Shown here: positions 3,301-58,615 of the stretch, piece after piece
Position numbering within the stretch: the stretch's first letter is position 1
Layout of the letters: every line of letters begins with the position of its first letter
Assembly (NCBI GenBank): GCA_003255025.1
Contig: QANY01000091.1
Coordinates: forward strand, 560,215 to 624,214
Direction of reading: 5' to 3'
From: Datisca glomerata
Lineage: Eukaryota > Streptophyta > Magnoliopsida > Cucurbitales > Datiscaceae
Length of the DNA: 64,000 nucleotides
Notes under the pieces: generated by a model
What the model saw: only the letters and a program-made list of their open reading frames with translations
Databases searched by the model: none
What the model was told of the DNA's origin: nothing
Translations under genes and position numbers: made by a program

Positions 3301-5455
3301 ATTAGTTGACAAATTCATTCCTGACAAAGCAGCTACAACATCTACAGGTTCATTAATGCTAGATGTGACACTGTTAAATGAATTTGGACTGGCGACGCCT
3401 CTCTTTTCAGATTTATTGGTTCTCCCACCTCCAATAGGTGTAGGACACGGACTAGGAGCCCTAGCAATAAGCTGTGGATCAGGAGTGTTGCTCCTTGACA
3501 AGGAAGCACCTAGAGCTGCCGCATACGAGTACGAAGAAGGTTGACCAATACTTTGGACTGCAGATGAAGTTGCTAAGTCATTGTTTAAATTAACAATCTC
3601 AGATTCAGAAAGACCTACAATCTCAACATTTTCATCAAGAGCATTACAACTGGCAGGACGAGAAGGAATCCCATTAACAGGAGTTGTGCGACCCAAGTCA
3701 TCCTGCATAAATAATAACACCTAAGAATCTCTGCTTCATTTTGGGAATATTAATCAAGCAAACCCCATGATAACACAAATGTCATTATTAAGAACAACTA
3801 TTCAAACATCGGCATATTGGTAAACAATAAAAAATAAAAAGAACATAAAGGAATGCTTTGATGCTACCTATGATGGAAACTTAATAAAACTAGAGTATAT
3901 TAAACAAAAATGGCATGGTAAATACATGAGAACTGGAAATTTTCAACAAACACATGGTCAATGACAATGAATGATGGATTTGCAAAGTACTTGACAATCT
4001 CAAGTATAAGAAAAGCCAAAGAGATAGGCACCCATGTATTTATGTACATGTATGCATCGAACGCTGGAAAAATCATAAGAACTAAGATGAGAGATCATGT
4101 AAATACGTTTTTACATTCATTAACCAAAACTCTTACTGATCAGCCCGGACAACCATAACTTTGTAATAGTACAGATTAGGTATACCTTAATTGCTTTTAC
4201 CTTGATCTTGATTCAAAATCTAGGATTTCAACATGTCTTAAAAATGAATTGTACTAGTCATCAAACCAAAAGGCCAATTCTGATCAACTATATCTTAGTA
4301 ATCAATCCAGGATACGAACATATAACAACTAAAAGTCATAATTACTTCAATAAAAGATTGACTCTCGAATCATAGAAATTTTTACTGTCAGCTAGAAAAA
4401 CAAACAGATTGAGAATCATGTTCTTGTTTCAATCTAGTTGAACATACTTGTTCAAAAGACTTCGCCTAAACATACAAAATCTTTTTTTGACCATAATAGT
4501 ATTTGATTCAACATACAAAATCTAGAATGTTGTATCTTTGTTAAAAGAATACATACATATATTAGCATATTCGACGAGTAAACTTTGACCTAGTTAAAGC
4601 ATGCTCTCATTGAAAAAGATGTAAGATAATACAAGTATTCTCGTTTAGGCGAAGTCTATCCCAGGAAGAGTGACTACAAACGATTAGGATAACGATAGTT
4701 TGAGGATCAAAATATCAACAAATAAAGTACACAGCTCTCAAAAGCAACGACCTTGGCTTGATAATAGATGGATTAAAACCTAAACATCAAGAACATTAAA
4801 GAAGTAAAATTACCTGAAAGATATCGGCAAGACTCTTTTGCTTGCTTCCAAGCCCTAAACCAGGCAGACCAATCAGTCCATCCCCACCCCACTCCAATGA
4901 GCCACGGGTTTTCTCCGACTCCGCCTCAATCTCTTGCTTCCGTGAATTAAAACCTGGAGGCATTAAGAATAATGATCTAGCACCACCATCTTCTACCTTA
5001 TTAACTTTTCTTCTATCACCAATTCCGCCCAATACTGAAGCCCCTCCTTTCAATCTTTGTGCGAACCTCCAATCCTCCTTAGAAAGCAGTGGAGGCGGGA
5101 GCCGAGGATTTAGATTAACATTGGAGTAATAGTACGATAAATAAGCCGGATCAGACCTTAACTCCTCTTCAGAAACAAACCCGTTTCCATTATTAGCTCC
5201 AGAAAACTCCAAAAAGGAAGTATTGCCGCCGCCGGCGGCACCACCACCACCAAACATTCCTCCGACTGCACTTAATGAACCCTCAACAGTCGGTGGCGCT
5301 GAGCCACTTCTATACAAATTGAGCTCGCGCTCACGATCATCAGCATCTTGACGTCGCTGTTCACGGAGCAACATCCCTATTTCTTTCTCCAACTCTTCCC
5401 CAAACGATCCTTCGTTGCCGCCAAGCATCGGTCTTCTACCCAATTCAGATAACAT
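366..5455 (-). CDS. PUM: Pumilio (PUF) RNA-binding protein, 7 coding exons, 3' end missing
   Basis: Binds UGUA-type sites in mRNA 3' UTRs and represses translation or stability, mainly in the cytoplasm (family knowledge). Coding exons read from the minus strand: 4814-5455, 2183-3702, 1943-2084, 1708-1815, 1101-1313, 885-995 and 366-560. All junctions are GT-AG, and the sum is 2931 nt, or 977 codons, in phase. I start at the ATG at 5453-5455 ([10 protein letters not shown]), matching the plant APUM N-terminus; the in-frame extension to 5491 begins with TTG. Residues 1 to about 690 form the plant NABP-type region ([31 protein letters not shown]). The PUF domain starts near residue 695. Repeat recognition residues are SRxxQ, NYxxQ, CRxxQ, NHxxQ, CRxxQ, NYxxQ and SNxxE for R1-R7. 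R8 is beyond the window. Which APUM1-6 paralogue it is cannot be decided. Confidence 0.95.
2112..2177. repeat. 33-bp tandem duplication in Pumilio intron 2
   Basis: Two perfect or near-perfect copies of a 33-bp unit starting ATCAATGAAGAC lie head to tail at 2112-2144 and 2145-2177. The second runs almost to the splice donor at 2181-2182. It does not touch coding sequence. Confidence 0.85.
4457..4657. repeat. 15-bp perfect inverted repeat in Pumilio intron 1
   Basis: AGACTTCGCCTAAAC at 4457-4471 recurs as its reverse complement at 4643-4657, enclosing about 170 bp of AT-rich sequence. It may be the ends of a degraded MITE. No target duplication was recognised. Confidence 0.4.
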
Positions 5456-6010
5456 TCTCAAAGTCAAAACTTGATCATTTACCTTCAACAACTCAGACTG
5501 ATCATCAACCCCTTAACAGCTCGAACTTATATCTTTCCGCGAGGTAACAATTACAACCCCAAACCCTTCGAACAATACCAAAAATCTAAGCTTTCATGCC
5601 AAAACACCTAAACAGCAATACCCATTAACCACAACTTCAAATTGCTTCCTCTAAACCAATCAAGACTTGAAAATTTTCCATCTTACCAGCTTCCCTGAAA
5701 CTTTCACACCTCAAAAAATGAACAACCGCACTACATAACTTATCTTCTCCGAAGCGTGTCTCGTCTATTTTAAACAAATATAACGTTTAGCAGCAACAAC
5801 AACAGCAGTAGCAGTACTAATTATTGTCCTGAAAGTGTAGCGATAACGCAAAAGCGAAGCAGTTTTCAGCTAGCAAAACTAATAATATTAAGAACAAGGG
5901 AGCAAAGCAAGACGCGGTTAAAGACAGAGGGAAAGATAGAGCGAACGGTTGAGATCAACCAGGCGGCGATTGCTTCTTACAAGAACCCTTCTTAGGGTTT
6001 TGTTCCAAAG
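5456..6010 (-). promoter_or_regulatory. Pumilio leader and proximal promoter with a telo-box
   Basis: Reading the minus strand, this stretch has the CT-rich, stop-containing character of a 5' leader. AAACCCTA (telo-box, plus-strand 5993-6000) lies about 540 bp upstream of the chosen ATG. Telo-boxes are common in promoters of plant translation and RNA-handling genes. The transcription start is not visible with certainty and a leader intron is possible. Confidence 0.5.
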
Positions 6011-7044: not shown

Positions 7045-9522
7045 CTACTCCAAGATATAAATGTCATCAATTATGGGAGGAGTGACACCCTCCCAAATAG
7101 AAGAAAATAAATTCGCAACAGCCAAAAGGGCTATCTTGTCGGTAATCGAATTACAAATTCTTGGGGTAAAATTAACAATACAATTTGGATGGAAATTAAG
7201 CTCTATTCTGATGGCTTGGATGATATTCCCACATTCTGAGATCCTAGCATATGAAGAATGTAAAGCTGTGTAAGCTTTGGAGGAGTCCGTCTCCACCACA
7301 TTAATCGCAATGTGAATTGCCCGTGCCAGTTTAAGGCCCTCCAAAATCGATGAAATTTCCGCTGTAAAAATATCAAGTCATGCATCAATGAAGATCGAAC
7401 CAACCAAAACCACTCAGCTCAGGTGGACGTAAGCGTTTACGTTCAACTTCAAAGAACCAGCTTCTGGTCTCGTCCACCTACTCAGAGGACTACCAGAGCT
7501 GCTCCAATTCCTTCAATTTTCCTACAGTCTGAGGATGTAAAATAGATCTCAGTCCTCTAGTAAACCGAGGCCTTTGTGTATCCAAGAATTTCTAGATAAA
7601 CCATATAAACCAACATAAGCAAACAGCAAATGCTAGGTCTTGAGAATGGAGATTAAAAAAATTCCTCTCTAAAGCATCTAAGGGATCCCCTGCATCTATG
7701 AAATCAAAACAATTATTCTCATTTAAGGTGCTGGAAAATTTTCTCCACGCCCTTTTAATTCGAGAGCACAAGAAACTGGCATGCACCACAGTTTCTAGTT
7801 TCCCACAAAACACATAGTGACTCCTACTCTCTATCCCTCTCCTTGCTAAATTGAGGAAAGTAGGAAGAAAGTTTTTTGAGACCTTCCAAAGGAATACTTT
7901 AATCTTAAGGGGAATGTGTAGATTCCACATTTTTTCCACCAACTCAGAGGACTACCAGAGTTGCACCCACAAGACTCATCCTTATTTAAAGCCAATTTTA
8001 ACTGTATATACCCCATTAGGATCAAAATGCTAAATCAACTTGTCTTTACAAAATGGCCCTGCGAGTGGAATTGATGCAATCAGATTTGCATCCTCTTTAT
8101 CAAAGAAATTCTCCAATCTGGCTCTCACCCATCTGTTTCCTTCTATAAAATCTGCCACTTTCTTATCCGGGGGAATCGATAATTTGCATAGAGGTTTAAA
8201 TGAGTGTGACTTAGGGATCCAAGCATCAGAGCCCACTTTAATGGCCTCTCCAGTTCCCATACACCATCTGAGGCCCTTACTCAAAACGTCCCTTCCCCAT
8301 AAAATGCGCCTCCAAACCATGGAAGCATTACCCTTACATTTGGCTTCAAGAAAAGAGCTATTCCAAAAATACTACCCTCTAAACACTTTGCTCATTAAAG
8401 TGGAAGGGTTCTAGATTACTCTTCACCCTTGGTTTGCAAGAAGGGCTTGATTAAAATGTCATATTCCTAAAGCCCATTCCACCCTCCGATTTAGGCTTAC
8501 ATAGAGCCTTCTAAGAAAGCCAATGCATTTTAGGGCCATTATCATTAAATTCTCACCAAAATTTGGCCATGGATTTTTTAATATCCTTGCAAACACACAT
8601 AGGAATGGGAAAACAATTCATAACATACACCGGTAAAGCTTGACCACAACCTTTTAGGAGAATCTCCTTTTCCCCATGGAGAATTTTTTTTCCTCCATCT
8701 TATGAGTAACTTGTACATTTTTTTCTTTTATATACCCAAACATGGCTTTCTTTGAACGACCCATGAATGCCAATAAAATCTAGGTAAGACTCAATCTGCA
8801 AGGCTACGGGGATATTTAGCACATAAGTAAGCATTGACTTCACCTCAGAGGTTGTGTCAGGGGAAAAGAAACTACAGACTTGGAGAAATTGATACATTGC
8901 CTAGATGTCTTAGTCAAAAACTATTTGAGGGAAATACATACCCTTTCCGTACCATTAAAAAAGAGGAGGCAATTACCAGTGAAGAGTAAGTGTGAAATAA
9001 TAGGCCCTCTCCTTCCAATTTTAGGACATTGAACTAAACCTGCCTCAACCGCCTTGCCTAACAGCCGATAAGCCTTCTGTACAAATCACATATAAATATG
9101 GGGATAATGGGTCTCCATGTCTAATACCCCTCATTGGATCAAAGGATGATGAGGGCTTCTCATTAATGAGAATTGCCATCCAGGTCGAGGTAACACATCT
9201 CATAAGATTTTTTTATAAATTTTTCATGAAATTCAAGGGCCTCCATAATCTTTTGCAAATAAATCCACTTCATTCTATCATACGCCTTACTCATGTCAAG
9301 TTTAGCTGCCACCAAGCTCCTATTTCCTCTTTTACGGATTGACATCGAATAGAGGATCTCAAAATCCGTCAAAACATTATCCATGATTAAACGATTTTTA
9401 ATGAAAGCACATTGATTTTCACACACAATAATCGGGAGGATAACTTTTAATCTACACGCAATTACTTTTGAGATAATTTTATAGAGAACATTGCATAAGT
9501 TAATAGGTTTAAAACCCGCCAC
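7045..9522 (-). pseudogene. LINE ORF2 remnant: reverse transcriptase, zf-RVT, RNase H
   Basis: The order along the minus strand is reverse transcriptase (9163-9522: INLCNVLYKIISKVIACRL, AAKLDMSKAYDRMKW), then a connecting segment (8030-8320: WRRILWGRDVLSKGLRWCMG). After these come a zinc-binding RT domain (7592-7942: IPLKIKVFLWKVSKNFLPT) and an RNase H-like tail (7045-7344). The pieces lie in different frames with stops between them, so this is a decayed copy. The catalytic FADD-type box was not found in frame. The upstream endonuclease is absent. All motifs are those of plant L1-clade LINEs. Confidence 0.85.
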
Positions 9523-9528
9523 ACAAAC

Positions 9529-9732
9529 TTAGCAAAATAATTGCGAGCACGGAGTCCGAGATCTGGAACCCGTTGTTGAAGAATTTGAATCTGAAACATT
9601 ATTTTCATTATACCTCCCTCTCTCAACCGACTCCGATGCTAAGAATGAGGATCTCCGTTTAGCCTTTATCTTTGATTGACTCTCCAAAGACACTGCATTT
9701 CTGCCACAATTAAGTCTGCTATGTTTTCTCAT
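9529..9732 (-). pseudogene. C-terminal fragment of LINE ORF1
   Basis: The 67-residue frame (KHSRLNCGRNAVSLESQSK, then a Ser/Arg-rich tail) resembles the basic, low-complexity C-terminus of DUF4283/zinc-knuckle LINE ORF1 proteins. It is followed directly by the RT fragment, without the endonuclease that should separate them. Its upstream part is cut off by the copia LTR at 9781. Confidence 0.5.
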
Positions 9733-9780
9733 CGAGGCAATGGTCTGTTTCTCATGGATATTTCTTTTTCTTCTTTTTTT

Positions 9781-11873
9781 TGTTGATCATCGCAGCGCGT
9801 GCGTGGTGGAACCGTGTGGCGTGCGGCAATTTAAACAATTAAAACTTTTCATAAAAAATCAAATCTTTTGGTAAAACAAAATCGCACAACGCTACGATTA
9901 TCAAATTTTTTTTTATTGAAAACTCTTTTCAATTAGTCAGGATCCATTATATATTTATATATTAAATTAACAACATATAATGATAGAAATCATATACCTC
10001 TTGTAGTCTAAATTAAGCATCCTCGCAAAATCAATCGATTCTCCGTTCCCACGAAATCATTCCAATGATCAGCAGACTCCGAGATCCACACCAAAATCTT
10101 TCAAGTCAATCCTCAACACACTAGGACCTATGTAGGCACGTAGAATATAACGATATCATTTTTCTGCCTCTAGATGTACTCAACACATGAAATTTAGGAA
10201 TTTTACTAAGAAGAACTTTTGTAAGATGATTCTCCAAAAGAACGTAACGATGATTTTTTTATAGATTTGATTAACTCTTAATCGTAGAAAAATCACTCCT
10301 TGAGAACTGTGTTCTTCTCTCAACTCTTGATTGATGAACAAATTCTCTAATTCATTATCTTAGGCGATCAGAATAATATATATATATATATTCTTTGATA
10401 ATGACGTATAAGATAATATGGGGTAATTGAAATAAATATTTAATTATAAAATTATCGATAGCAGTGGGACACACTGCTATTATGCACAACTACAGTGCCA
10501 CATGGCACTACAGTGTGTCGTGAGGCAGCACAGTGCCTCACGACACCACTGTAGTGCCATGTGGCAATTACAACGTATTAAATATTTATTTTAAATAAAT
10601 TAAATATCTATATATTTGTTAATTCAAAATTAACATATCTGACAATCTCTATCAACTAGATTATCTGTTATGTCATAAATAACAGATTTAGTTTATCCAA
10701 ATTATTATTTAATAATAATTTAATTATCTAATTTCATAAAATAGATATTTTATTTCACTTATCGATAATTTTTTATATATATTAATTCTAAAAATTACAT
10801 TTATATATATATAAATAATTCAATTAATTAATCACACATAATTATCTCATAATTATGTACTTACCCTAGAATAATTTTTTTTACAACTTAGTACATTTCT
10901 TATGTCCTGAAATATTCATACCATAGACTTCGTAGTATATAAATTACTTGGGGACCATGAACCTATGATCCTAAGCTCCAATAAATCAAATTATTAATCT
11001 AAACTCTTTAATTAAATAATCTTATTTATTTATTCAATTATTACTGTACTATAATTATGAAATTACATTCTTAGAGATTACATATTGTATTTACAGAGTA
11101 TTATTATGTAGTCCACTGGTCAAAATTATCATTTTACCCTTTTAATTACCTCTTGATCATTAAGTATCATTAATCCACTAGTGAATGGCTAATTTATAGT
11201 CTTATTATAAATTTGAACTCAATAACCATTCAGTTTCAGAATTAACACTTAGGAAGCCAATATACGATCACATAAGAAAGTTTAGATTCTAAATCTTGTA
11301 AGATCATGTTCCCAACCATCCATATCACTAAATCTCCAAAACAAAAGTCACTAGCATGTTTTCCAAACAAACCTTAATGAGTGAATCAAAAGATCCAATA
11401 GAGATGCATAGGAGTTCATGAGTACTCAGGATTCAGATTGATCTACATATGATTATCGAATTGATGTGTATTAAATTTTTATGATAAACTACATGTTGAT
11501 AAATATATTAATTTACATCGGTTCAGTCATATATAATCTCATTATATAAAGCACATTCACTAAGATATCTATCCACATCAATGATCCAGATCTAGATCAC
11601 ATGCATTCATAATGTTTTGTGAACCATACTAGCAATCATTCATTAAATATTTCATACTTTAATATGTTGCTGGCAATTTTATTCATTATCTATGATCGTA
11701 ATCCTCTCGTACTAATACAAGATCATAGTCTTATTAATGAATATGGAATTTTCAGATATTTATATAAATTATTCAACAATAATTTAAAAGAACAATTATA
11801 AGAAAAATGTAATCCTTATTAAATTGCATATCAAAATGTCAATACACATAGTTTGAGGGTGTAACCCCCAACA
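9781..11873 (-). repeat. 3' LTR of the large copia element (2.09 kb)
   Basis: It aligns along its length with 23710-25594. It begins TGTTGATCATCGCAGCGCG and ends GGTGTAACCCCCAACA on the plus strand. It contains many small differences and a 120-bp GC-richer palindromic segment that the other LTR largely lacks, so the element is old or recombined. Confidence 0.88.
10497..10565. repeat. 31-bp near-perfect hairpin inside the 3' LTR
   Basis: The arms 10497-10527 and 10534-10565 are reverse complements apart from one extra base, with the six-base loop GCACAG. The corresponding part of the other LTR (about 24130-24215) keeps only fragments, so the hairpin is polymorphic between the two LTRs. Confidence 0.85.
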
Positions 11874-11890
11874 ATCTCCCACTTGCCCTA
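11874..11890 (-). other. Polypurine tract of the large copia element
   Basis: Read on the minus strand, the bases directly before the LTR are GGGCAAGTGGGAGAT. This is the expected position and composition of the plus-strand primer for reverse transcription. Confidence 0.65.
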
Positions 11891-12009
11891 AAGCAAATGT
11901 CGCATTTCTCTCAATCTCATGTTTCACACATGACCCTCAAACATCTTCCTAGGAAGTGTTTCAGTAAATGGGCCAGCCATGTTATGATCCAATGTTATCT
12001 TTATAACAG

Positions 12010-14480
12010 TCAGATCACATCGGTGTATGACCTGAACGTCGACTTTCGACTATCCTTATCTAATTCATAATCAGTATATTCAGTGCGATTCAGGTCTCCA
12101 CCTGAAGAAACAAGCATATAGTTTCTCATTCTCCTAAGATACTTGAGAATATACTTTACTGCAATCCAATGTTCCAAACCTAGATTCGATTGATAACGAC
12201 TGACAATTCTCACTGCATAACAGATGTCTGATCTTGTACACAACATGACATATGTGAAACTTCCAACTGCTAAAGCATAAGGAACTTTTCTCATATCATC
12301 TTCCTCCTGAGGTGTCTTAGGACATTGTTCCTTGAAAAGCACAATTCCATGTATGATCGGTAGTTGACCTTTCTTAGAATTCTGCATAAAGAATCTCTCC
12401 AACACCTTATCAATATAAGATGCATGAGAAAGTGCTAAGAGCTTGTTCTTTCTATCCAGTAGGATTTGGATGCCTAGAACATAACTCGCAACTCCCTAAT
12501 CTTGTATTTGGAATTTCTCAACTAACAACTTCTTTACCTTTGACAGAGTTTCTACATCATTCTCAATGAGCAGAATATCGTTAACATAAAGAACTAAGAA
12601 AACTACTATCTTATATTTGTTTGATATATTTATAAACATAGGCTTCGTCAACATTTTACTCGAAGCCATAATACTTCATAATCTCGTCAAATGTAAGATT
12701 CAAAGATCTAAGATGCTTGTTTTAATCCATGAATGGATTTAAGCAATTTGCATACTTTCTGATCTTGCCCCTTTTATATGAACCATTTTGGTTGCATCAT
12801 ATAGATGCTTTCTTCAGGAGAGACATTTAAAAAATATTTATTGACGTCCATTTTTCATATCTCATAGTTTAAACTAGCAGCTATGGACAAAAGGATGCGA
12901 ATGGATTTCAGCATGGCCATAGGGGAGAATGTCTCTTCATAATTGACTCACTCCCTTTGTGTATAGCCCTTGGCTACTAACCGTACTTTGAAAGTCTAAC
13001 TTTCCCATCTGCACCTCTTTTCATCTTGAAGATTCATTTACATCCAATGGGTCTGACATCTTCTGGTGGATCAACAAGTCCTAGACAAAATCAGAATACA
13101 TAGATTTCATTTCCATGTTCATGGCACCTTTTCATTTCTCCTTTTCAGGATCATCCATTGCTTCTTCATAAGATAATGGATCGTCATTATCAGTGTCTAA
13201 CACTAGAACACGTGCTTCTAGTTCGTAGCAAACTGATTGTCTCACTACCCTTCCACTACGACGTAGCACCGGAGTTTCCTTTGTAGGAACAATGGTTTCT
13301 CTAGTTTGTCGTTTATTAGTAAAAATTGAAGGTGGTTTGATCTCATCAGCCACTAATTCCTCGAGAACTACTTTACTATGAGGTTTGTGGTTTTACAAAT
13401 AACCATGATCGAGGAAGGTTGTATTTGTCGACACAAACACTTTTTGATCGTTATGACTATAAAAATACCCGCCTCTAGCCTCTAGAGCATGGCCTACGAA
13501 TAAGCATACTTCATACCATGAGTCTAACTTTCTGGTCTTGGGTCAAAGAACGTGAGCAAGAGACTCTTATATACAGAAATAACGCAAACTAGGTTTGGAG
13601 TCATTCCATAACTCTAAAGGCATCTTGCTTACAGACTTAGATGGCACTACATTCAAAATGTAAGTTATCGTGTGTAGTGTATATCCCCAAAATGTAAGTG
13701 ACAATGATGAGTAGCTTAACGTCGACCTAACCATATCCAATAAGGTTCGGTTTATTCTATCTACAACACCATTTTGTTGTGGTGTTACAGGTGTTGTGAG
13801 TTGGGATAGGATTCCACACTCCAGCAAATAATCCATGAATTCTAAATCTAAGTATTGACCACCTCGATCGGATCGAAGGGTTTTCAATGATTTATCAAAT
13901 TATTTTTCAGCTTCAGCCTTGAAGTCTTTAAACTTTCCAAAAGTTTCAGACTTTCTATGCATTAGGTAAGTATAATCATATCTTGAGTAATCGTCCGTAA
14001 AAGTGACAAAAATACTCATACCTACCTCTAGCTTGTACATTGATCGGTCCACATACATCACTATGTACTAGCTCAAGTGGTTCATTGGCTCTTTGGCCCT
14101 TTCCTGTGAAAGGTTTGGTCATTTTACCCTCCAGACAGCATTCACAAACAAGAAGAGTTCCAACTTTTAGTTCTCTCAAAGTATCATGCTTTGTTAATCT
14201 GTTTAACCTATCTAGATTAATATGTCACAACCTAAGATGCCAAAGATATGTGTTATCATCATCGTGAGAAACTCTTTGTCATTTGTTACTTTGAGGTTTT
14301 GCTACTTTAAATAATTCAGAATTATTTAAAGCGCGTTTAGTTGGTTTAAGCATATATAGTCCATTTATAACTTTTGCATGATAAATATTGAATTCATTCT
14401 TAAAAATAATAAATTCTTTATTAATAAACGAAATTTTGAATAATTGTTCTTGCAAAATTGAAAAAGAAATGAAATTTCTC
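12010..14480 (-). pseudogene. Copia pol remnant: integrase, reverse transcriptase, RNase H
   Basis: Along the minus strand: a pre-integrase remnant and integrase start (13976-14179: CCLEGKMTKPFTGKGQRA, LVHSDVCGP) and the integrase core (13567-13887: LRSDRGGQY, TPQQNGVVDRINRTLLDMVR). Then a linker (13132-13353), a broken RT with YVNDILL in place of YVDD (about 12560-12600), and the RT end with the start of RNase H (12010-12405: MLCTRSDICYAVRIVSRYQS, DKDSRKST). Frameshifts and stops separate the pieces. The mutated RT active-site box and the broken frames indicate it cannot encode a working polyprotein. Confidence 0.88.
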
Positions 14481-14539
14481 AAAAATCCAGGAACATAATA
14501 AAAATCGTCAAAACTAAATAATTATATCCAAAAAGTAAA

Positions 14540-15335
14540 CAGACTATCCCTAATGCTTTAGCTGACACGAGCGCACCACTACCAATTCTCAAAACGACAT
14601 CATCATCATCTAGTTTCCTTGGCGAATCAAGCATATGCAAAGAATAACATACATGGTTAGTGGCTCATGAATCAAGTATCTAGGATGACAAATCATATTC
14701 CACTAAACAAGCTTCAAGTACAAGTAAATCATATTTATCTTTCTTTTTCAGCTAGGAGAGATACTTGTTACATTTTCTCTTCCATTGACCTTCAACCCTA
14801 CAATGGAAATATTTTTCTTTATGCTTGTTGTCTTTCTTATTCTTCTTGGCTTTTAGTGATGTCTTGGCTTTCTTCACTTTCTTGTTCTTACTTTTGCATT
14901 TCCATTGATCTTCTTCCTCTTGTTACTATTAACAATGGAAGTAGGCTTTTGCTCGACAACATTTATCTCACCCTCATAGATCATTCTAAGGTTGAGTGAC
15001 TCAAAAATCTGCAATTCATTCAACAATTGGGTCGTGTTGAATTGCAACTTGTTACATGGTTGGTTGTGAACGCAGAAAAAGTTGGTGTGAGCGACTCGAG
15101 TATAATGGTAACTTGAGTCATCTCATCAATGGTCGCCTCATGTATTTCTACCTCATGCAATATATTGATCATGTTCAAAACTCCTAGTGGCCTCATAACG
15201 ACTTTGATCAGACAACTGCCTAAACATCGCCTGTAGAGGTTCCATAATCTCATAGGCAGTCTCCATGCGTTCATGCTCGGTTCTCAGAACATCATTCGTG
15301 AGTTGATCCGAGGGAGGCTGATGGTTCATCATCAT
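14540..15335 (-). pseudogene. gag-protease module A (most degraded)
   Basis: This module is the one continuous with pol. Its gag part (15020-15335) contains NDVLRTEHERMETAYEIM. The zinc knuckle has lost its first Cys (Tyr) and its His (Gln). The protease region reads DS-stop-ATNHVC, keeping the ancestral ATN. Modules B-D carry VIN here, so A separated from them first. A 65-bp box (15299-15362) links it to the microsatellite tract. Confidence 0.75.
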
Positions 15336-15362
15336 TTTTTAATCTCATTATAACATCCTCCC

Positions 15363-15720
15363 TCAAACTCACGTTCTTTCTCTCCCTCTCTCCTCTATCT
15401 CTTTCATGCTATCTATCTCTATCTCTCTCTCACTCCACATCCCCCATCTCTCCCCCACCCCCTCACTTTCTCACACACACACACACACTCCCATTTCTCT
15501 TCCTCTCTCTCCCCCTCTTTCTCCCCCCCTCTCCCTCCCCACTCTATATCTCTATCTCTTTTATCTCTTGTTCTCACTCTCTTTCTCCCTCTTCATCTCT
15601 CTCCCCCCTCTATATGTTTATCTCTCTCACACACACATACACATGCACACATAGGCATACACAGAGAGAGCGCGCACACACACACACACACACACTCTCT
15701 CTATCTCTCTCTCTCTCTTG
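15363..15720. repeat. (TC)n/(CA)n microsatellite tract 1
   Basis: This is about 360 bp of almost pure pyrimidine on the plus strand, with (CA)n blocks near 15473-15487 and 15676-15695. In the element's sense strand it is a polypurine and GT tract. It lies between modules A and B, and a frame from module B reads straight into it. Confidence 0.92.
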
Positions 15721-16625
15721 CAAAATGAAAGAGAAATAAAAATTCTTAAGAATCTAGGAATATAATAAACATAATTTAAAACTAAATAATTATATCTAAA
15801 AAGTAAACGAACTATCCCTATTACTTTAGCTGACACGAGCGTACCACTACCAACTCTCAAAATGACCTCGCCATCATCCAACTTCCTTAGCAAATCAAGC
15901 ATTTGTAATGAATAACATACATGGTTAATGACTCCTGAATCAAGTATCCATGATGAAAAATCATATTCCACTAAACAAGCTTCAAGTACAAGTAAATCAT
16001 ATTTACCTTTGTTTTTCAACTCGGAATGATACTTGTTACAGTTTTTCTTCCAATGACTTTCAAACCCACAATGGAAACATTTTCCTTTGGGCTTGTTGTC
16101 TTTCTTGTTCTTCTTGGCTTTTGGTAATGCCTCAGTTGTCTTCCCTTTCTTATTCTTACTTTTATCCTTTCCATTGATCTTCTTCCTCTTATTACTATTA
16201 ATAGTGGAAGAAGATTTTTGCACAACAACATTTGTCTCTCCCTCTTTGGTCATTCTAAGGTTGAGTGATTCAAAGATCTACAGTTCATTTAACTTGAGTC
16301 TGCTCATCAATGGTTGCCCCATGTACTTCTTCCTCATGCATTATATTGATCATGTTCAAAACATGTTCTTGCACAAAAGTACCATTTCTCATCTTAGTTG
16401 CCATATAGCTCCTAGTGATCAGACTGCTGCCCAAACATCATGTGCAGAGATTCCATAATCTCATAGGCAGTCTCCATACTTTCATGCTTAGTTCTCAGAA
16501 CATCATTCATGGTCACAAGTATGTAGCACTTCGCCTGGTTATTTGATATGATCCAGAACATATTTGTCCCTCACATTCTTAGAGGCATTAGTAGGGGTCT
16601 CATCAGGACATTACTCAGTAAGAAC
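15720..16625 (-). pseudogene. gag-protease module B
   Basis: An open frame of about 208 codons (15627-16253, minus) holds a basic stretch rich in KKxK, then an intact CX2CX4HX4C zinc knuckle (CFHCGFESHWKKNC). The protease start follows as WILDSGVINHVC, where family members normally have DSGA. The gag part upstream (16253-16625) is broken by stops. The frame ends by running into microsatellite-coded Val-Cys and Arg-Glu repeats. Confidence 0.85.
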
Positions 16626-16640
16626 GAACTTATGGTTCTA

Positions 16641-17021
16641 ATATAGATCTTGAAGTCATATTGAAGCTATTTTGAAGATATTTTGAAGCTATCTTGAAGC
16701 CATCATGCAACTGTCACGAACACATCTTGAAACCAGCTCACTTGAGCACATTTGAAGCTTCAAGATGGTTTCAAGATGGCTTAAAGATGGTTTCAAGATG
16801 GCTTCAACATGTCTACAAGATGACTTAAAGATGGTTTCACAATGTGTCAATTGGTTCAAGAAATGGTTAATTTATGTGGCATGGCATTTAGTTTCATACC
16901 ATTTGTTTCTTACCAGAATAGAATATTCATCATCAAAATAACTAAATCAAATACAACATTAATAGCCTCAAGAGTAAATGCCATGCTACATGAATTAACC
17001 ATTTCTTGAACCAATTGGTAA
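16641..17021. repeat. Fold-back palindrome block 1
   Basis: Direct repeats of (C/T)TTGAAGCCAT on the left are mirrored by CTTCAAGATGGC-type repeats on the right, centred near 16750. A second inverted pair of about 43 bp (from 16851 and ending near 17020, sharing CAATTGGTTCAAGAAATGG) encloses about 70 bp. A near copy lies at 19399-19862. Confidence 0.85.
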
Positions 17022-17165
17022 TTGTGTCAGCTGAAGAACGAGAAAAATGAGGCAAAGGTCGAGTTTTCGTGGGGTTCAGAAATTGACTGGAATTACATGA
17101 AGGTGTCCAGCAAGCACTATTGGAATTTTGAAAATATAAAAATGTGTATATTTAACTTGAGATTT
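17022..17165 (+). other. Conserved extra reading frame, copy 1 (unknown)
   Basis: It is open on the plus strand, antisense to the element, for about 48 codons including SWGSEIDWNYMKVS. The same frame is open in the second copy at 19863-20010, with both silent and replacement differences. It is not a recognised copia protein; a captured host exon is one possibility. I do not recognise the family. Confidence 0.4.
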
Positions 17166-17167
17166 AA

Positions 17168-17445
17168 CATCTCCTCTCTCTCTCCCTCGCTCGCTCTTTC
17201 TCCCTCTTACTATCTACTATCTCCACGTCTTTACTCTCTCTCCCAATCTCTCCCTCCCCCTCTATCTCTTTGTCTGTCTCACTCCCTCTTCGATGAGTTA
17301 ATCCAAGGGAGGCTGATGGTTCATCATCGTTTTTTAATCTCATTATAACATCCCCCCTCAAACTCACTTCTCTTTCTCCCTCTCTCCTATCTCTCTATCT
17401 CTCACACCACATCCCCTCTCTCTCTCTCCCACCCCCTCACTTTCT

Positions 17446-17484
<39 letters not shown>

Positions 17485-17655
17485 CCATTTCTCTTTCTCT
17501 CTCTTTCTCCCTCTTCATCTCTTTCTCCCCTCTCTCTATATATCTATCTATATCTCTCTCCCACACACACACACGCACACACACACACACACACACACTC
17601 TCTCTCTCTCACACAGACACACTCTCTCTCTCACCCTCCTCTCTCTCTCTATCAC
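17168..17655. repeat. Microsatellite tracts 2 and 3 with the 65-bp box between
   Basis: (TC)n-rich 17168-17290 and (TC)n/(CA)n 17365-17655 flank a 65-bp non-repetitive box (17293-17358, starting GATGAGTTAATCC). The same box stands at 15299-15362 and 20131-20197. The (CA)n run at 17450-17482 is the longest pure run in the window. Confidence 0.92.
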
Positions 17656-18680
17656 AAAATGAAAGGGAAATAAAATTTCTTAAAATTTCTTAGAATACAA
17701 TAAACATCATTTAAAACTACATAATTATATCCAAAAAGTAAACAAACTGTCCTTAATGCTTTAGCTGACACGAGCGTACTACTGCCAACTCTCAAAACTA
17801 CCACACCATCAGCCAGCTTCCTTAGCAAATTAAGCATCTGTAATGAATAACATACATGGTTAATGACTCCTGAATCAAGTATCCAGGATGACAAATCATA
17901 TTCCATTAAGCAAGCTTCAAGTACAAGTAAATCATATTTACCTTTATTTTTTAACTCAGAATGATACTTGTTACAGTTTTTTTTCCAATGACTTTCAACC
18001 CCACAGTGGAAACATTTTCCTTTGGGCTTGTTGTCTTTCTTGTTCTTCTTGGCTTTTGGTAATGTCTTGGTTGTCTTCCCTTCCTTATTCTCACTTTTGT
18101 CCTTTCCATTGATCTTCTTCCTCTTGTTACTATTAATAGTGGAAGAAGACTTTTGCACAACAACATTTGCCTCCCCCTCTTTGGTCATTCTAAGGTTGAG
18201 TGATTCAAAAATCTACAGTTCATTTAATAATTGGGTCATGTTGAATTGCAACTTGTTCATAACATAGTTGGTTGTGAAGGTAGAAAAAGTTGATGTGAGC
18301 GACTCAAGTAAAGTGCTAACTTGAGTATGCTCATCAATGGTTGCCCCATGTACTTCTTCCTTATGCATTATATTGATCATGTTCAAAACATGTTCTTGCA
18401 CAAAAGCATCATTTCTCATCTTAGTTGTCATATAGCTCCGAGTGATCAGACTGCTGCCCAAACATCGCATGCAGAGATTCCATAACCTCATAGGCAGTCT
18501 CCATGCTTTCATGCTCGGTTCTCAGAACATCATTCATGATCACAAGCATGTAGCACTTCGCCTTGTTATTTGATATGATCCAAGCATCATATTTGTCCCT
18601 AAGAATCTTAGAGGCATTAATAGGGGTCTACTCAGAACATTACTCAGTAAGAATGAACTTATGGTTCTCATAAATCAACA
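17655..18680 (-). pseudogene. gag-protease module C
   Basis: The open frame at 17652-18188 is nearly identical to module B. It starts MTKEGEANVVVQKSSS and has an intact CX2CX4HX4C knuckle (CFHCGVESHWKKNC) and DSGVINHVC at the protease start. An upstream gag fragment at 18213-18512 is in another frame. The DSGV-for-DSGA change, shared with B and D, groups the three copies. Confidence 0.85.
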
Positions 18681-19398
18681 TTAACCTCATGTTTGCCCAT
18701 GGTAGACATAATAATGATAACTAAAATTTAAAATATATAAGATTCAATATAATTGATAAATATCTAGAATTTGAAATGTGATGCACGAATACAACATAAT
18801 AAACATTAACATTTACTAATCACGCTAAACAATTCAACGATTAATGTGCTGCCTTAGGGTCAATCAGATTAACCTTAGACTATCTATGAGACATTCTCAT
18901 CCTTATTAATTAAAACTTAAAATATCTCATATTTTCTCTTTTAACGATAAGATATCACTTATTTGGTCAAGTCACAACTATCCACATGAAAGCTTAATTG
19001 TGACTTTGTGAGTGTAACTCATTATTTTAGATTTCATGACTTGATTTAGAATATGCCGCCTTAAGGTTGGTCAAAACTAAACTACATCATTTCCTCCTAT
19101 CTTATTAAGAAGTCTAACGTTGGTATTGGTACAGCTCGAAACCTTTCTTAAGGGGATGAAAACAAAGTCATCTCGAGGCCTTCGCTGTACCTCACGGTGT
19201 TGTACTAATAATGAATATAGTAGGTTACATTGACATGTCAACCAAAAATTAAAAGATCAAAACTACCCAATAATCACTATACATTTAACGATCAATTATT
19301 TTTCATACATTCAAAAAACATATATCTTTGTGAATTGATCCGACAAAGGGTTTACAAGGTGAGCTCACATGAAGGTAGAGAGAGGGAGTCAAATGAAA
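18680..19398 (-). repeat. Duplicated element leader belonging to module C
   Basis: 18690-19215 matches 21720-22270, including the TTAATTAAAACTTAAAATATC segment. Around 19252-19318 it then jumps to sequence that otherwise stands next to the 5' LTR at 23562-23607. It is thus a copy of the element leader with about 1.3 kb deleted. Confidence 0.75.
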
Positions 19399-19862
19399 AT
19401 GACTTCAAGATATATTCAAGATGAACTTAATATAGATCTTGAAGTCATATTGAAGCCATTTTGAAGCTATCTTGAAGTCGTCATGAAACTGTCATGAACA
19501 CATCTTGAAGCCATCTTGAAGTCGTCATGAAACTGTCATGAACATATCTTGAAGCCATCTTGAAGACCACTTGAGCACATTTGAAGCTTCAAGATGATTT
19601 CAAGATGGCTTAAAGATGGTTTTAAGATGGCTTCAACATGTCTTCAAGATGGCTTAAAGATGGTTTTAAGATGGCTTCACACTTGTCAATTGGTTCAAGA
19701 AATGGTTAATTTATGTGGCATGGCATTTAGTTTCATATAATTTTTTCTTTTACCAGAATAGAATATTCATCATCAAAGTAACTAAATCAAATACAACATT
19801 AATAGCCTCAAGAGTAAATGCCATGCTACATGAATTAACCATTTCTTGAACCAATTGGCATA
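19399..19862. repeat. Fold-back palindrome block 2
   Basis: It has the same architecture as 16641-17021. An extra tandem copy of the segment CATCTTGAAGCCATC...ATGAAACTGTCATGAAC makes the left arm longer. The inner 43-bp inverted pair lies at about 19687-19729 and 19815-19858. Confidence 0.85.
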
Positions 19863-20010
19863 TTGTGTGAGCTGAAGAAAGAGAGAAATGAGGCGGAGGT
19901 CGAGCTTTCATGGGGTTCTGAAATTGACTGGAATTATATGAAGGTGTCCCGCAAGCATTATTGGAATTTTGAAGATATAAAAATGTGTATATTTAACTTG
20001 AGATTTAACA
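19863..20010 (+). other. Conserved extra reading frame, copy 2 (unknown)
   Basis: An open frame of about 49 codons (ELKKERNEAEVELSWGSE, then IDWNYMKVSRKHYWNFE) parallels the copy at 17022-17165 and then enters pyrimidine-rich sequence. Its function is unknown. Confidence 0.4.
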
Positions 20011-20655
20011 TCTCCTTTTTCTCTCCATCGCTCGTTCTTTCTCCCACTCACTTTCTACTATCTCCACGTCTTTACTCATTCTCCCACCCTCTCCCCCCCT
20101 CTATCTCTTTGTCTGTCTCACTCCCTCTTCGATGAGTTGATCCGAGGGAGGCTGATGGTTCATCATCATTTTTTTATCTCATTATAACATCCCTCCTAAA
20201 CTCACTTTCTCTCTCTCTTTCTCTCCCTCCCTCTCTCCTCTATCTTTCTCACGCTATCTATCTCTATCTCTATCTCAGTCCACATCCCCCCCTCTCTCCC
20301 ACCCCTTCACTTTTTCACACACACAAACTCACGTTCTCTCTCTCTTTCTCTCCCTCCCTCTCTCCTCTATCTTTCTCACGCTATCTATCTCTATCTCAGT
20401 CCACATCCCCCCTCTCTCCCACCCCTTCACTTTTTCACACACACACTCTCTCTCCCATTTCTCTTCCTTTCTCTCCCCCTCTTTCTCCCTCTCTCCCCCT
20501 CCCCACTCTATATCTTCATCTCTCTTTCTCTTGTTCTCTCTCTCTTTCTCCCTCTTCATCTATCTCTCCCCCCTCTCCATATATATATCTCTCTCTCACA
20601 CACACACACACACACTCTCTCTCTCACCCACACTCTCTCTCTCTCACCCTCATTT
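20010..20655. repeat. Microsatellite tracts 4 and 5 with the 65-bp box
   Basis: Pyrimidine tract 20010-20130, box 20131-20197, then (TC)n/(CA)n 20200-20655. The last tract includes a head-to-tail duplication of about 120 bp (roughly 20209-20327 and 20328-20447) that carries both TC-rich and CACACA parts. Confidence 0.9.
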
Positions 20656-21844
20656 TAAAACTAAATAATTATATCCAAAAAGTAAACGAACTGTCCCTAA
20701 TGTTTTAGCTGACACTAGCGTACCACTGCCAACTCTCACAACGACCTCGCCATCAGCCAACTTCCTCAGCAAATCAAACATCTGTAATGAATAACATACA
20801 TGGTTAATGACTCCTGAATCAAGTATCCAGGATGACAAATCATATTCCACTGAACAAGCTTCAAGTATAAGTAAATCATATTTACCTTTATTTTTCAACT
20901 CGGAATGATACTTGTTACAGTTTTTCTTCCAATGACTTTCAACCCCACAGTGGAAACATTTTCCTTTAAGCTTGTTGTCTTTCTTGTTCTTCTTGGCTTT
21001 TGGTAATGTCTTGGTTGTCTTCCCTTTCTTATTCTTACTTTTGTCCTTTCCATTGATCTTCTTCCTCTTGTTACTATTAATAGTGGAAGAAGACTTTTGC
21101 ACTACAACATTTGCCTCGCCCTCTTTGGTCATTCTAAAATTGAGTGATTCAAAGATCTACAGTTCATTTAACAATTGGGTTGCAACTTGTTCATAACATA
21201 GTTGGTTGTGAAGGCAGAAAAAGTTGATATGAGCAACTCAAGTATAATGCTAACTTGAGTCTGCTCATCAATGGTTGCCCCATGTACTTCTTCCTCATGC
21301 TTTATATTGATCACGTTCAAAACATGTTCTTACGTAAAAGTATAATTTCTCATCTTAGTTGTCATATAGCTCCTAGTGATCAGACTGCTACCCAAACATT
21401 GCGTGCAGAGATTCCATAATCTCATAGGCAGTCTCCATGCTTTCATGCTCGGTTCTTAGAACATCATTCATGGTCACAAGCATGTAGCACTTCGCCTTGT
21501 TATTTGATATGATCCAAGCATCATATTTTTCTCTAACATTCTTAGGAGCATTAGCAAGGGTCTCCTTAGGACATTGTTTAGTAGAGAATGAACTTATGGT
21601 TCTCAAAAATCAGCATTAAATCCATATTCGATTCCCAAAGTATAAAATTATCACCATTCAATTTCTCAAACGCAAGTAAAACTGTAACAGGGTTGCCCGT
21701 GATAGACAGGGTTACCCATGGTAGACATAATAATGATAACTGAAATTTAAAACATATAAGATTCAATATAATTGATAAATTTCTAGAATTTGAAAAGTAA
21801 ACGTGATGCATGAATGCAAGATAATAAACACACAAAATTAACAT
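20655..21844 (-). pseudogene. gag-protease module D (5'-most, with gag N-terminus)
   Basis: Minus-strand frames are 21578-21844 (gag start: LAFEKLNGDNFILWESNMDL), 21388-21606 (gag middle: NDVLRTEHESMETAYEIMES) and 20650-21132 (basic region, CX2CX4HX4C knuckle, DSGVINHVC protease start). It stands next to the leader and 5' LTR, so it occupies the original gag position. Frameshifts separate the three frames. Confidence 0.85.
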
Positions 21845-23709
21845 TAGTCACGATAAAATAACCCAACGATTAACGTGTTGCCTTAGAGTTAGCCAGATTA
21901 ACCTCGGACTGTCTATGAGACATTCTCATCCTTATTAATTAAAACTTAAAATATCTCATGTTTTCTCTTTTAACAATAAGGTATCGCTTGTTTGGTGAAG
22001 TCACAACTATTCACATGAAAACTTAATTTTGACTTTGTGAGTGTAACCCATTATTTCGGATTCTATAACTTGATTTAGAATATGTCACCTTAGGGTCGGT
22101 CAAAATTAAATTACATCACTTCCTCCTATCTTCTTAAGAAGTCCAACGTTGGAATTGGTAGCCCTCAAAACCTTCCTTAGGGGGATGAAAATAAAGCCAT
22201 CTCGAGGCTCTCACTGTACCTCACAGTGTTGTACTAATAATGGAGATCGTAGGTTACGTTGACATGTCAACATTCTCTCACTCACTATTTTAGGATTATG
22301 TGTTTCCATTTTAACTAATTAATTAATTTTAAATTAATTACTAGTTAAAATAATAACTCTATGAATATTTACTTATTAGTTATATCAATCTCATTGGTCT
22401 AAGTTCATTTAACCTTCTAAAACGCCTAAGTCATAATTAGATGAGCTTAGATTGATAATTAAGTATATTTATCAAACTTTAACAAAACTCTTTTACTAAA
22501 GCCGGTTATCCTAAATGTTAGTATAGCCCTTACTGTGGTGTGATTACCAAGTTTTAACTAATTAAAATCTAGCAATTTACATGCATTTGATTTCATAAAA
22601 CAATACGTATAAACATATTAGGACAATCCTAATAAATCATATTTCTACCGATAAGATGCATGATTATATAAAACTTTGTGGGATTTTCATGTATGACATA
22701 CGATCGACTAATGCATGGACATGTTATCAGACATAATAATTTAAATAATTATTTAATAAAATAATAATGGGCTGAGTGACTATTGAGTATTTCTAAATTA
22801 CAACCCTTGAAATAACGAAATAAAATTACAAAGTAGATTTCAAGAATACAAATTTTTCAAATATTGCCTTCTCCCCTGATCTTCATCTCATAATCTCCAA
22901 GCTTTGAACACAATTTTATTTAATTAAAAACAAATTTTCTTAATTCAAAATAATTTTTATAATTATCTCTTTTAAAATAGTTGACTTTAACGTAATCAAA
23001 TAAACACTTTATTTGATTTGGTCAAACTTGGATCAAATTCAAACAACCTATTAATTTCTAATTTTCATAAAATTAAAAATTAATTTATATTTTTCATAAA
23101 ATTAAAAATTAAAAATTAACTTTAAAATTACATTAATTTCAAAATTTAAAAAGATAATTTATAGATTGAGGGTTAACATCAAACCATATGATGATAGGTT
23201 AATGGTATCAGGGTTTGTACGAAACTTTCCTAAAAGTGACAACAGTTGCCGCCAACAACAAGACTCTCCTATCGTCGTCCCATCATCGCCAGCCACCACT
23301 GCTGACGCCAGTCCCACTGCCGGCGGCCGTCGACCACCGCCGCCGGAACAATATTTTCTAACCTGAACAATAAATTTTCCGTGAACAATAAATTTTCATT
23401 GTGAACAGTAAATTCCGTCGCTCATCTCGTGCGTTTTTCTTTTTCTCACATTCGGAATAATTACAATAATATTCAAAATTAATTACAAAAATTTCTACGC
23501 CTTAAAACGGCTTACACAAGATCTAAGAAATATTAAAATATCAAAATCTAACATAGTAATCACCATACAATTAACGATCAATTATTTTTCATACATTCAA
23601 AAAACATAACCATCCATTGATTCATATTTATCACATATCATATGAACAATGCAAGAAAATCCAAACATGATTTAACATATAAATATATAAAGACCACAAT
23701 GATATCACT
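21845..23709 (-). other. Leader of the large copia element, with degenerate primer-binding site
   Basis: This is non-coding AT-rich sequence between gag and the 5' LTR, with one GC-rich island at 23270-23345 (CCGGCGGCCGTCG...). Directly inside the LTR, at 23696-23708 read on the minus strand, stands GTGATATCATTG. It resembles the GTGGTATCAGAG-type copia primer site for initiator-Met tRNA with a few changes. Confidence 0.6.
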
Positions 23710-24434
23710 TGTTAGTTGTCGCGGCGCATGCACGGTGGAAGCGTGTGGCGCATGGCCATTTAAAAAAATTATACTTTTCATAAAAAAAATTGAATCTTTT
23801 GCTAAAATAAAATTGCGCAACGTTACGATAACCAAATTTTTTTTATTGTCATTATATATTATATATTAAATTAATAACATACAATGTTAGGAATCATATG
23901 CCTCTTGTAAACTAAATCCATTTTTCACACACTTAGCAATTTGATTAACTCTTAATAGTAGAAAAATCACTCCTTAAGAATTGTGTTCTTCTCTCAACTC
24001 TTGATTGATGAACTAATTTTTTGATTCATTATCTTAAACCATCAGAATAATATCTATATATTTTTTTTGATAATGACGTATTAGATATTTTCGGATAATT
24101 GAAATAATATTTAATTATAAAATTGTCAATAGTGGTGGGACACACTGCTATTGTGCACGTGGCATTACAGTAGTTCATGTCAATCTTTTTGATACACAAT
24201 CAATGACTGACACCTGACAATTACTATGTATTAAATATTTATTTTAATCAAATTAAAAATCAAGATATTTGTTAATTTTAAATTAACATATTTGATTATC
24301 CATATTAACTAAATTATCTGTTATTTCATAAATAACATATTTAGTTGATCCAAATTATTATCTAATAATAATTTAATTATCTAATTTCATAAATTAGATA
24401 TTTTATCTCACTTGTTGATAATTAAAAAAATCGA

Positions 24435-24469
<35 letters not shown>

Positions 24470-25594
24470 CAATTAATTAATTTTTAACTAATTAATCACA
24501 CATAATTATCTCATAATTATATACTTGCCTTAGAATAAAAATTTCATAGCAAGAAAGTCATTTTCTCATGTCCTGAAATATTCACATCCTAGACTGTATA
24601 GTACAAAGTTGACTTGGGGACCATGGACCTATAATCCTAAGCTCCAATAGACCATATTATTAATTAAACTTTTTAATTAAATAATCTTATTTATTAATTT
24701 CATTATTACTCCACTATAAATATGGAATTGCTCTCTTAGAGATTACATATTATATTTACAGAGTACACTCATGTAGTCCAATGATATAATAATTTCACAT
24801 AGTTATGTTCTCCAATTATTGGTTCGTAATTTAGAACTGATCAAAATTATCGTTTTATCCTTCTAATTACCTCTTGATCCTTAAGTACCATAAATCCACT
24901 AGTGAATAGTTAATTTATAATCTTATTATAAATTTGAGCTCAATAACCATTCAATTCCAAAATTAATACTTAAGGGAACCAATATATGATCTGTTAGAAA
25001 AACTTGGATTATAAATCTTATATGATCATGTTCTTAACCATCTATATCACTGAATGTCCAAAATAAAAGTCACTAACCTATTTTCCAAACAACCTTAACG
25101 AGTGAATCAAAAGATCCACTAAACATGCATAAGAGTTCCTGACTACTTAAGATTCAGCTTGATCTACATATGATCATCGAATTGATGTGTATTAAATCTT
25201 TATGATAAACGACATGTTGATAAATATATTAATTCACATCGTTACAGCATATATAATCTCATTATATAAAGCACTTTCACTAAAATGTCTATCCAAATGA
25301 ATGATTCGAATCTAGATCACATGCATTCATAATGGTTAGTGAACTGTACTAGCAACCATTTGTTAAAGATTTCACACTTTAATATGTTGCTAACAATTTT
25401 ATTTATTATCTATGATCTTAATTCTCTTGTACTAATACAAGATCATAGTCTCATTAATGAATATATAATTTTTAGATATTTATATAAATTATTCAACAAT
25501 AATTTAAAAGAATAATGATAAGAAAAATGTAATTCTTATTAAAGTTCATATCAAAATGCCAATACACATAGTTTGAGGGTGTAACCCCCCAACA
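23710..25594 (-). repeat. 5' LTR of the large copia element (1.89 kb)
   Basis: It aligns with 9781-11873 and has the same TGTT and AACA ends. It is about 200 bp shorter, partly through loss of the hairpin segment. It carries a (TA)n run near 24440-24467. Confidence 0.88.
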
Positions 25595-25599
25595 CCATA

Positions 25600-26295
25600 C
25601 TGGAAGTCAACCCAAATTGCTTCTGGGTTTAGAGGTATCTTGAGTTTTAAGCCCTGAGACAGTGGAAAATCAATATTGAGACATACCCTAGTTCGAAGAC
25701 ACCTTCTCCAGCATACACCATCAGGTCCTTCATCTATATCAATAAATTTACCGATTCAATCTCCTATTCGGCGAGTAGGGTTCTCCTCCATGTGGTGCAC
25801 TCCCGCTTCTTCATACCCGGAATAAGTTTGAGCAAGCTGAAGCTCCTGTTCAAGGGAAGGGTTCCAAACCAGCCTTTACCCATCTCCTTCGTCGTGCATA
25901 GAATAGGGAGATCAAACTTGCACCCAAAAACTCACTTCATTTAGGACTACTTCAGATGGTTGTATATACCCGTTTATTTCCCCCAACAAAATAAGAGTCT
26001 TATCAAAACACCATGGATCATTTCTCACAACCCTAATTTTATCAACTGGATGGCTGAAAATGGCTAAGAACATGTTCTGGCCAATCTCCTTAACACTTAC
26101 ATTCTTTGTCGTATTCCATATCTTCAGTATCGCATTATAAAAAGCATTTTTGTTCACTGTTTTTTGCGTCAAGATCTTAATTACCAGACACATAGAGGGG
26201 TCTATCACTTCCCCCACAGAATCATCAATCTCCAACACTGTTTCCTCCATCTCTGTTAGAGATAGGGATTGCCACTGTTTTGAGATATTCTCCAT
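25600..26295 (-). pseudogene. LINE ORF1 N-terminal part (DUF4283)
   Basis: I start at the ATG at 26293-26295 (MENISKQWQSLSLTEMEE), the usual plant LINE ORF1 opening; the longer frame to 26394 adds an untypical N-terminus. DUF4283 motifs follow: NVSVKEIGQNMFLAIFSHP and RVVRNDPWCFDKTLILL. After a stop near 25912 the remaining frames still encode GVCWRRCLRTRV and NPEAIWVDFQYG. The sequence stops at the copia LTR just before the expected zinc knuckle. The ORF1 product normally binds nucleic acid. Confidence 0.85.
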
Positions 26296-26470
26296 TACTA
26301 ATGGGACAGAAAGAAAAGAAGCCACTAGGCTAAAGAATCTCACCGAAGGCAGAGGTAAGTACTCATAGATGAGAGAGAGAGAGAGAACTCTCATGTAGAG
26401 AGAAGACTAAAGCGCCAGTGTTGAGAATGTTAACCTGTGAGAGAGAACTTTGTTTCTGCATAGAATCTGT

Positions 26471-58327: not shown

Positions 58328-58615
58328 TGTAGAAATGATGAACTTTTAGTGTTCTGATCTTAAAGAAAGAGGATGAACTTCTTGTTCTGATTTCTTATTG
58401 ATAATACTGATACTTTACAATGAGTAAGTGATGTATATATACATATAATCTCTAACGGTTGCCTATAATCTCCAACGGATGCCTACTGATCGTTTTTTTC
58501 AGAAATGGTTAGACACCCACCGTGTTTGGTGAAAGTCTCTGTTCTACTTCTCTTTTTTGCCTGTGATGAGGATTTTTCTTCTGAGGCAATACTTTCTGTT
58601 TCTCTTTCTTCAACA
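58328..58615 (-). repeat. 3' LTR of the 4.8-kb copia element
   Basis: 288 bp, TGTAGAAATG...CTTCAACA. The C-run at 58616-58623 directly inside it is the complement of a GAGGGGGGGG polypurine tract. Confidence 0.95.

What the first reader, a model, noticed from the sequence alone, without database searches (positions are those of the whole stretch)
11874..23709. One copia element carrying four gag-protease modules separated by microsatellites
Seen: modules at about 14540-15335, 15720-16625, 17655-18680 and 20655-21844 all encode the same gag/zinc-knuckle/protease-start segment in the same orientation, between a single pair of LTRs and a single pol. Three share the derived protease start DSGVINHVC; the pol-linked one keeps ATNHVC. 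This suggests B-D multiplied after splitting from A. Each boundary carries (TC)n/(CA)n tracts and a common 65-bp box. Inference: the sense-strand polypurine tracts served as recombination or template-switch points.
Basis: partly seen in the sequence, partly recalled or inferred. Interest (0 to 1): 0.75.

Follow-up and report, generated by a model that had tools for sequence, protein, structure and literature searches.

The report
Amplified junction of two dead retrotransposons
Four copies of part of a dead plant jumping gene sit in a row, most likely because two old copies were fused and the fused stretch was then duplicated in place, an odd-looking but ordinary kind of genome decay.

Summary
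The four gag/protease modules (A-D) are real, same-strand and separated by microsatellite tracts with a shared box. They are probably not a multi-gag mobile element. The repeated unit also contains about 1.3 kb of non-element spacer; its piece 19680-20190 was found near full length only twice in the 678-Mb assembly, both here, and not in the roughly 4-kb stretches around 28 family gag copies. B-D form a clade of their own (100/100, 28 family loci), about half as deep as their split from A, so amplification was local and later than insertion. The one mappable breakpoint lies inside gag (C 18594; 0 of 500 permutations), not in a microsatellite. The outer LTRs lack a target-site duplication, while both testable family copies keep one, and their flanks lie about 650-675 bp apart in two related LINEs: probably two insertions, though the LTR tree does not decide. 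Best account: two copies fused by deletion, then the joint amplified by unequal exchange and trimmed. A second two-module copy exists. A weak synonymous excess among B-D (22 of 48; 14.9-16.3 expected) is unexplained.

The parts
23710..25594 (-). 5' LTR (LTR5), outer flank TATGG in sense
21620..23709 (-). leader (5' untranslated part) of module D; its part 22272-23709 is matched next to gag, over 151-1026 bp, in 28 of 28 family loci
20650..21619 (-). module D: gag/zinc knuckle/protease start
   Evidence: Pol_BBD
20136..20650 (-). box plus microsatellite between D and the spacer
19323..20135 (-). non-element spacer: 19323-19392 without a listed match elsewhere, 11-bp-repeat foldback 19436-19679, MITE-like hairpin about 19684-19860, then DNA without full-length match elsewhere
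18685..19322 (-). leader of module C, lacking the equivalent of about 22272-23527
17655..18684 (-). module C; exchange breakpoint against D at about 18594
   Evidence: Retrotran_gag_2
16647..17655 (-). second copy of spacer, box and microsatellite
15716..16646 (-). module B, without leader and with a deletion in gag
15302..15718 (-). remnant of the unit: box plus microsatellite
14448..15301 (-). module A, joined to pol; gag start missing, 3 stops in 164 codons
11874..14447 (-). decayed pol (integrase, reverse transcriptase, RNase H remains) and polypurine tract next to LTR3
   Evidence: only a weak integrase match, below the curated cut-off, was found by profile
9781..11873 (-). 3' LTR (LTR3), outer flank AAAAA in sense
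9163..9780 (-). LINE flank, reverse-transcriptase side
25595..26406 (-). LINE flank, DUF4283 (ORF1) side

Best explanation
The locus is a dead composite of two copies of one large copia family. Step 1 (inferred): copy X (LTR5, leader D, gag) and copy Y (leader C, gag A, pol, LTR3) inserted in the same orientation into one LINE, roughly 650-675 bp apart. Step 2 (inferred): the stretch from X's protease to Y's leader was lost, and about 1.3 kb of non-element DNA ending in a microsatellite came to lie at the joint; where it came from is unknown. Step 3 (local amplification shown; unequal crossing-over inferred): misaligned exchange between gag copies, with one breakpoint about 90 bp into gag, added two [microsatellite-spacer-leader-gag] units at about half the age of the family burst. 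Step 4 (seen in the sequence): deletions removed B's leader, A's gag start with its leader and spacer, and part of leader C. It most likely has no function of its own.
For: Spacer piece 19680-20190 near full length only at C and B of this locus; other listed rows are parts only (48 rows, 40 of 79 candidates scored); no spacer match in the roughly 4-kb stretches of 28 of 28 family loci. B-D clade 100/100 against 28 family loci; B-D 92-93% alike, best of those 28 loci 86%. Spacers B-C K2P 0.091 (0.071 outside the repeats), as young as the modules. C-D change point in gag, 0 of 500 permutations: gag young, leader old (0.149). A, leaders and LTRs all at the between-copy level 0.149-0.170, and A is no closer to B-D (86-87%) than to L051 (87%). 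No target-site duplication; both testable family copies keep it, L046 5 of 5, L041 4 of 5. Flanks about 650-675 bp apart in LINE copies L082 and L083. B and C share one protease/microsatellite joint. Second two-module copy at C201.
Against: LTR5-LTR3 over 759 bp is 0.130, like the true pair of L046 (0.134), and lower than LTR5 to every other row except a 222-bp fragment; the tree holds LTR5 and LTR3 together at 65/48. A joins B-D at 93/92. Leaders C and D held together are not rejected (p-AU 0.369). The spacer has no match in the LINE copies, so two LINE insertions do not explain it. This LINE copy seems to have other deletions. The third LINE copy, L084, gave no match. Upstream of the breakpoint B-C (11 of 76) is not clearly younger than B-D (15 of 76). 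One search did not list modules A and B of this very locus, so its list is incomplete.
Confidence: 0.62

Rival explanations
1. One insertion of an already chimeric two-module cDNA made by template switching between co-packaged RNAs; B-D then amplified in place.
For: A, leaders and LTRs stand at one level of divergence (0.149-0.170); LTR5 and LTR3 weakly together (65/48) at 0.130; A with B-D at 93/92.
Against: No target-site duplication while 2 of 2 testable copies keep it; flanks not contiguous in L082 and L083; the spacer is not family sequence. By the criteria of PMC1950507 a template-switch complex keeps the duplication.
Confidence: 0.2
2. A multi-gag element that moved as such, with microsatellites as recombination points.
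For: Tracts at all three borders.
Against: No second place with the spacer found; breakpoint in gag; one copied joint, not three independent ones.
Confidence: 0.05
3. Assembly artefact.
For: Repetitive region; reads were not available.
Against: Modules differ by 7-16% and carry different deletions, and the window has no N, so a collapsed or repeated identical array is unlikely.
Confidence: 0.05
4. The gag-derived frames in B-D were kept by selection.
For: Open frames of 216, 186 and 168 aa (B's runs on into the microsatellite); dN/dS 0.24-0.28 among B-D against a median of 0.57 and 5% quantile of 0.36 in 378 family pairs.
Against: With the actual mutation types 22 of 48 synonymous against 14.9 expected (z 2.25), with methylation context 16.3 (z 1.81); chance of no stop 0.43-0.61 per lineage. 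Expression was not tested.
Confidence: 0.03

Closest known systems
Recombinant complex LTR retrotransposons (Sabot and Schulman 2007, PMC1950507, whole text read in two parts; Devos et al. 2002 only as cited there)
   Same: Two same-strand copies of one family joined, outer LTRs diverged, no matching target-site duplication.
   Different: No third, internal LTR; non-element spacer at the joint; the joint was then amplified.
Tandem repeats from centromeric retrotransposons, CRM1TR/CRM4TR (Sharma et al. 2013, PMC3648361; abstract, outline and one section read)
   Same: Proposed path of a deletion-made joint inside or between elements, followed by growth through non-allelic exchange at the locus.
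   Different: CRM repeats are LTR-UTR units of gypsy elements; here gag, leader and foreign spacer of copia elements, only a few units. They favour gene conversion for growth.
Retrotransposon-derived satellites of Lathyrus sativus (PMC7004042; abstract and outline read)
   Same: Retrotransposon DNA expanding into tandem units.
   Different: Those start from short arrays already inside the elements; here the unit is kilobase-sized and was found at one locus only.

Membership tests
Ty1/copia LTR retrotransposon | gag, protease-linked and integrase/RT domains in copia order between LTRs | tested here: met
   Retrotran_gag_2 (C) and Pol_BBD (B, D over the cut-off, C below) by profile; integrase match weak, RT/RNase H read by eye. 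Order inferred. Thousands of related candidates in the genome.
Ty1/copia LTR retrotransposon | 5-bp target-site duplication at the outer LTR ends | tested here: not met
   TATGG against AAAAA; L046 and L041 as controls. The locus is therefore filed as copia-derived, not as one intact insertion.
Recombinant complex LTR retrotransposon | no matching target-site duplication and diverged outer LTRs | tested here: met
   but LTR divergence equals that of a true pair of the same age, so this half is weak
Recombinant complex LTR retrotransposon | internal third LTR | tested here: not met
   It works like a recombinant complex but is not one in the strict published sense.
Template-switching complex | target-site duplication around the complex and near-identical outer LTRs | tested here: not met
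Retrotransposon-derived local tandem repeat | units more alike within the locus than to elements elsewhere | tested here: met
   B-D only, not A: (incomplete list)

The most novel reading that the evidence does not exclude
Modules B, C and D diverged partly under purifying selection: either three active members of a now vanished sublineage were gathered here by serial recombination, or gag-derived zinc-knuckle frames were kept by the host.
Probability: 0.04. Interest if true: 0.65.

Novelty: new member of a known kind. Interest (0 to 1): 0.24.

Why it matters
It is a datable example of two retrotransposon copies fused outside their LTRs, whose joint, with foreign spacer DNA, became a small tandem array. 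It also warns that several gag modules between two LTRs need not mean a multi-gag element.

Tried and rejected
Microsatellites as exchange points: rejected for the mapped event, because the breakpoint is in gag and B and C share one copied joint. LTR fragments between modules: none found. Spacer as part of the family: not in the stretches of 28 of 28 loci. The stop shared by B-D (TAG where A has CAG) as proof of a dead common ancestor: dropped, since TAG stands there in 8 and TAA in 4 of 28 family copies. A TAA that I thought shared by B and C: the column was mis-indexed and I claim nothing from it. Trees to assign leaders and LTRs to X or Y: unresolved. Rfam: no match at the gathering score in the window. 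L051 as a target-site control: by eye its 3' LTR has no intact end. Structure prediction, promoter scans and the viral, phage and plasmid collections were not used.

Papers: the listings showed no paper describing several gag modules in one copia locus; this covers only the held open-access library and the listed rows. LTRtype (PMC5379124) was seen in passages only.

Open: a second gag search, with a piece of B, was sent and never answered, so the absence of close kin of B-D elsewhere rests and the incomplete list.

Full report
Observation. On the minus strand the order is LTR5 25594-23710, leader D 23709-21620, module D 21619-20650, microsatellite and box 20650-20136, spacer 20135-19323, leader C 19322-18685, module C 18684-17655, microsatellite, box and spacer 17655-16647, module B 16646-15716, microsatellite and box 15718-15302, module A 15301-14448, pol to 11874, LTR3 11873-9781.

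The repeated unit. The repeat is not gag alone. Spacers 19469-20396 and 16647-17545 match each other; the order spacer, box, microsatellite, protease end is the same at B and C, with the same joint, while D lacks the last part of the protease end. Inside the spacer an 11-bp-repeat foldback and a hairpin of about 175 bp have many partial matches in the genome; 19323-19392 has no match among the listed rows (the list was cut), and 19680-20190 has no near-full-length match outside this locus (40 of 79 candidates scored). Of 38 other places listed for gag C (40 of 4548 candidates scored) I received loci for 28. In 0 of 28 was the spacer found in the roughly 4 kb held; 28 of 28 match the leader part that leader C lacks, over 151-1026 bp of 1438 and up to its gag-side end, so leader C has lost it; 26 of 28 match the pol piece after gag.

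Ages. K2P: A to B, C, D 0.160-0.165; B-C and B-D 0.088; C-D 0.080; spacers B-C 0.091 (0.071 without the repeat part); leaders C-D 0.149; LTRs 0.170. In a tree of 28 family loci and A-D the family is nearly a star with tips near 0.08; B-D form a clade (100/100, stem 0.049), and A joins them at 93/92 with a stem of 0.010, below the tool's star. By raw identity A is 86-87% to B-D and 87% to L051; it shares 4 rare states with all of B-D and 5 with each, against a median of 2 and a top of 19 over 378 family pairs. So B-D come from one module at about half the age of the burst; A, both leaders and both LTRs stand at the between-copy level.

Mechanism. Along C and D the difference drops from 0.139 to 0.064 at C 18594 (support 18611-18569, 0 of 500 permutations). 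Misaligned exchange between two gag copies predicts this: gag and spacer become young duplicates, leaders stay old. B should there side with C against D; the counts lean that way but are too few (B-C 11 of 76, B-D 15 of 76, C-D 15 of 85). Gene conversion could give the break but not the added copies. Deletions explain B's missing leader and A's missing gag start, the latter at an ATGA-like microhomology (read by eye).

One insertion or two. The flanks TATGG and AAAAA do not match. As a control I cut LTR pieces of six family copies (L041, L042, L043, L044, L046, L048; of the first eight L045 and L047 were left out by eye). Only two could be read at both ends, and both keep the duplication: L046 5 of 5, L041 4 of 5. 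Both flanks are LINE. In LINE copies L082 and L083 the points next to the two LTRs are about 650 and 675 bp apart (left flank matched only as protein, about 40% over 69-71 residues); the third copy, L084, gave no match. By the published criteria (PMC1950507) this is a recombinational rather than a template-switching complex, except that no internal LTR remains. Against this: LTR5 and LTR3 fall together, weakly (65/48), and over 759 bp are as far apart (0.130) as the true pair of L046 (0.134), although the LTRs of L041 and of L048 do not pair either (12 rows). The spacer is not LINE, and its origin is open.

Other two-module copies. A scan of the roughly 1.5-kb flanks of the 28 loci flagged three. 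L051 with L085 has leader, gag and pol start, then a second leader, part of gag, pol and LTR, without an LTR between; its leaders differ by 0.158 and gag starts by 0.146, so it too looks like two family copies. L061 has a 259-bp tandem repeat of gag's end. L067 has LTR pieces on both sides and was not followed.

Coding signal. dN/dS among B-D is 0.24-0.28, at the low edge of 378 family pairs (minimum 0.25, 5% quantile 0.36, median 0.57). Allowing for the kinds of mutation, 22 of 48 changes are synonymous against 14.9 expected (z 2.25), or 16.3 with methylation context (z 1.81). Changes among B-D by codon position are 22/6/19, between A and B-D 14/19/16. Open frames in B-D are not surprising (0.43-0.61 each). 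The signal is weak and unexplained.

Verdict. A decayed composite, probably of two copia copies, whose joint was amplified in place: known processes in an uncommon combination.

Noticed in passing
G000 C201:281200-292900 (L051, L085, L086, L087): Another copy of the family with two leader-gag modules and no LTR between them, made by a different joint and without the spacer.
   Followed up: partly
codon before IFESL in gag, family-wide: This codon is TAG in 8, TAA in 4 and CAG in 10 of 28 family copies: a recurrent or inherited stop.
   Followed up: no
window 25770-25833: A 64-bp stretch in the LINE flank is 95-100% identical at 11 other places while the LINE around it is at most 80% alike; no Rfam match.
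   Followed up: no
window 38899-39556 and 49027-49754: Arrays of a repeat of about 21 bp (CACCAAATACGTA...), in opposite orientations on the two sides of each place, foldback-like.
   Followed up: no
window 58610-62547: A different, better kept copia element with a 651-aa frame holding RVT_2.
   Followed up: no
window 2146-5512: Host gene pieces; the 524-aa frame matches NABP (PF07990, E 7e-162), a nucleic acid binding protein family.
   Followed up: no
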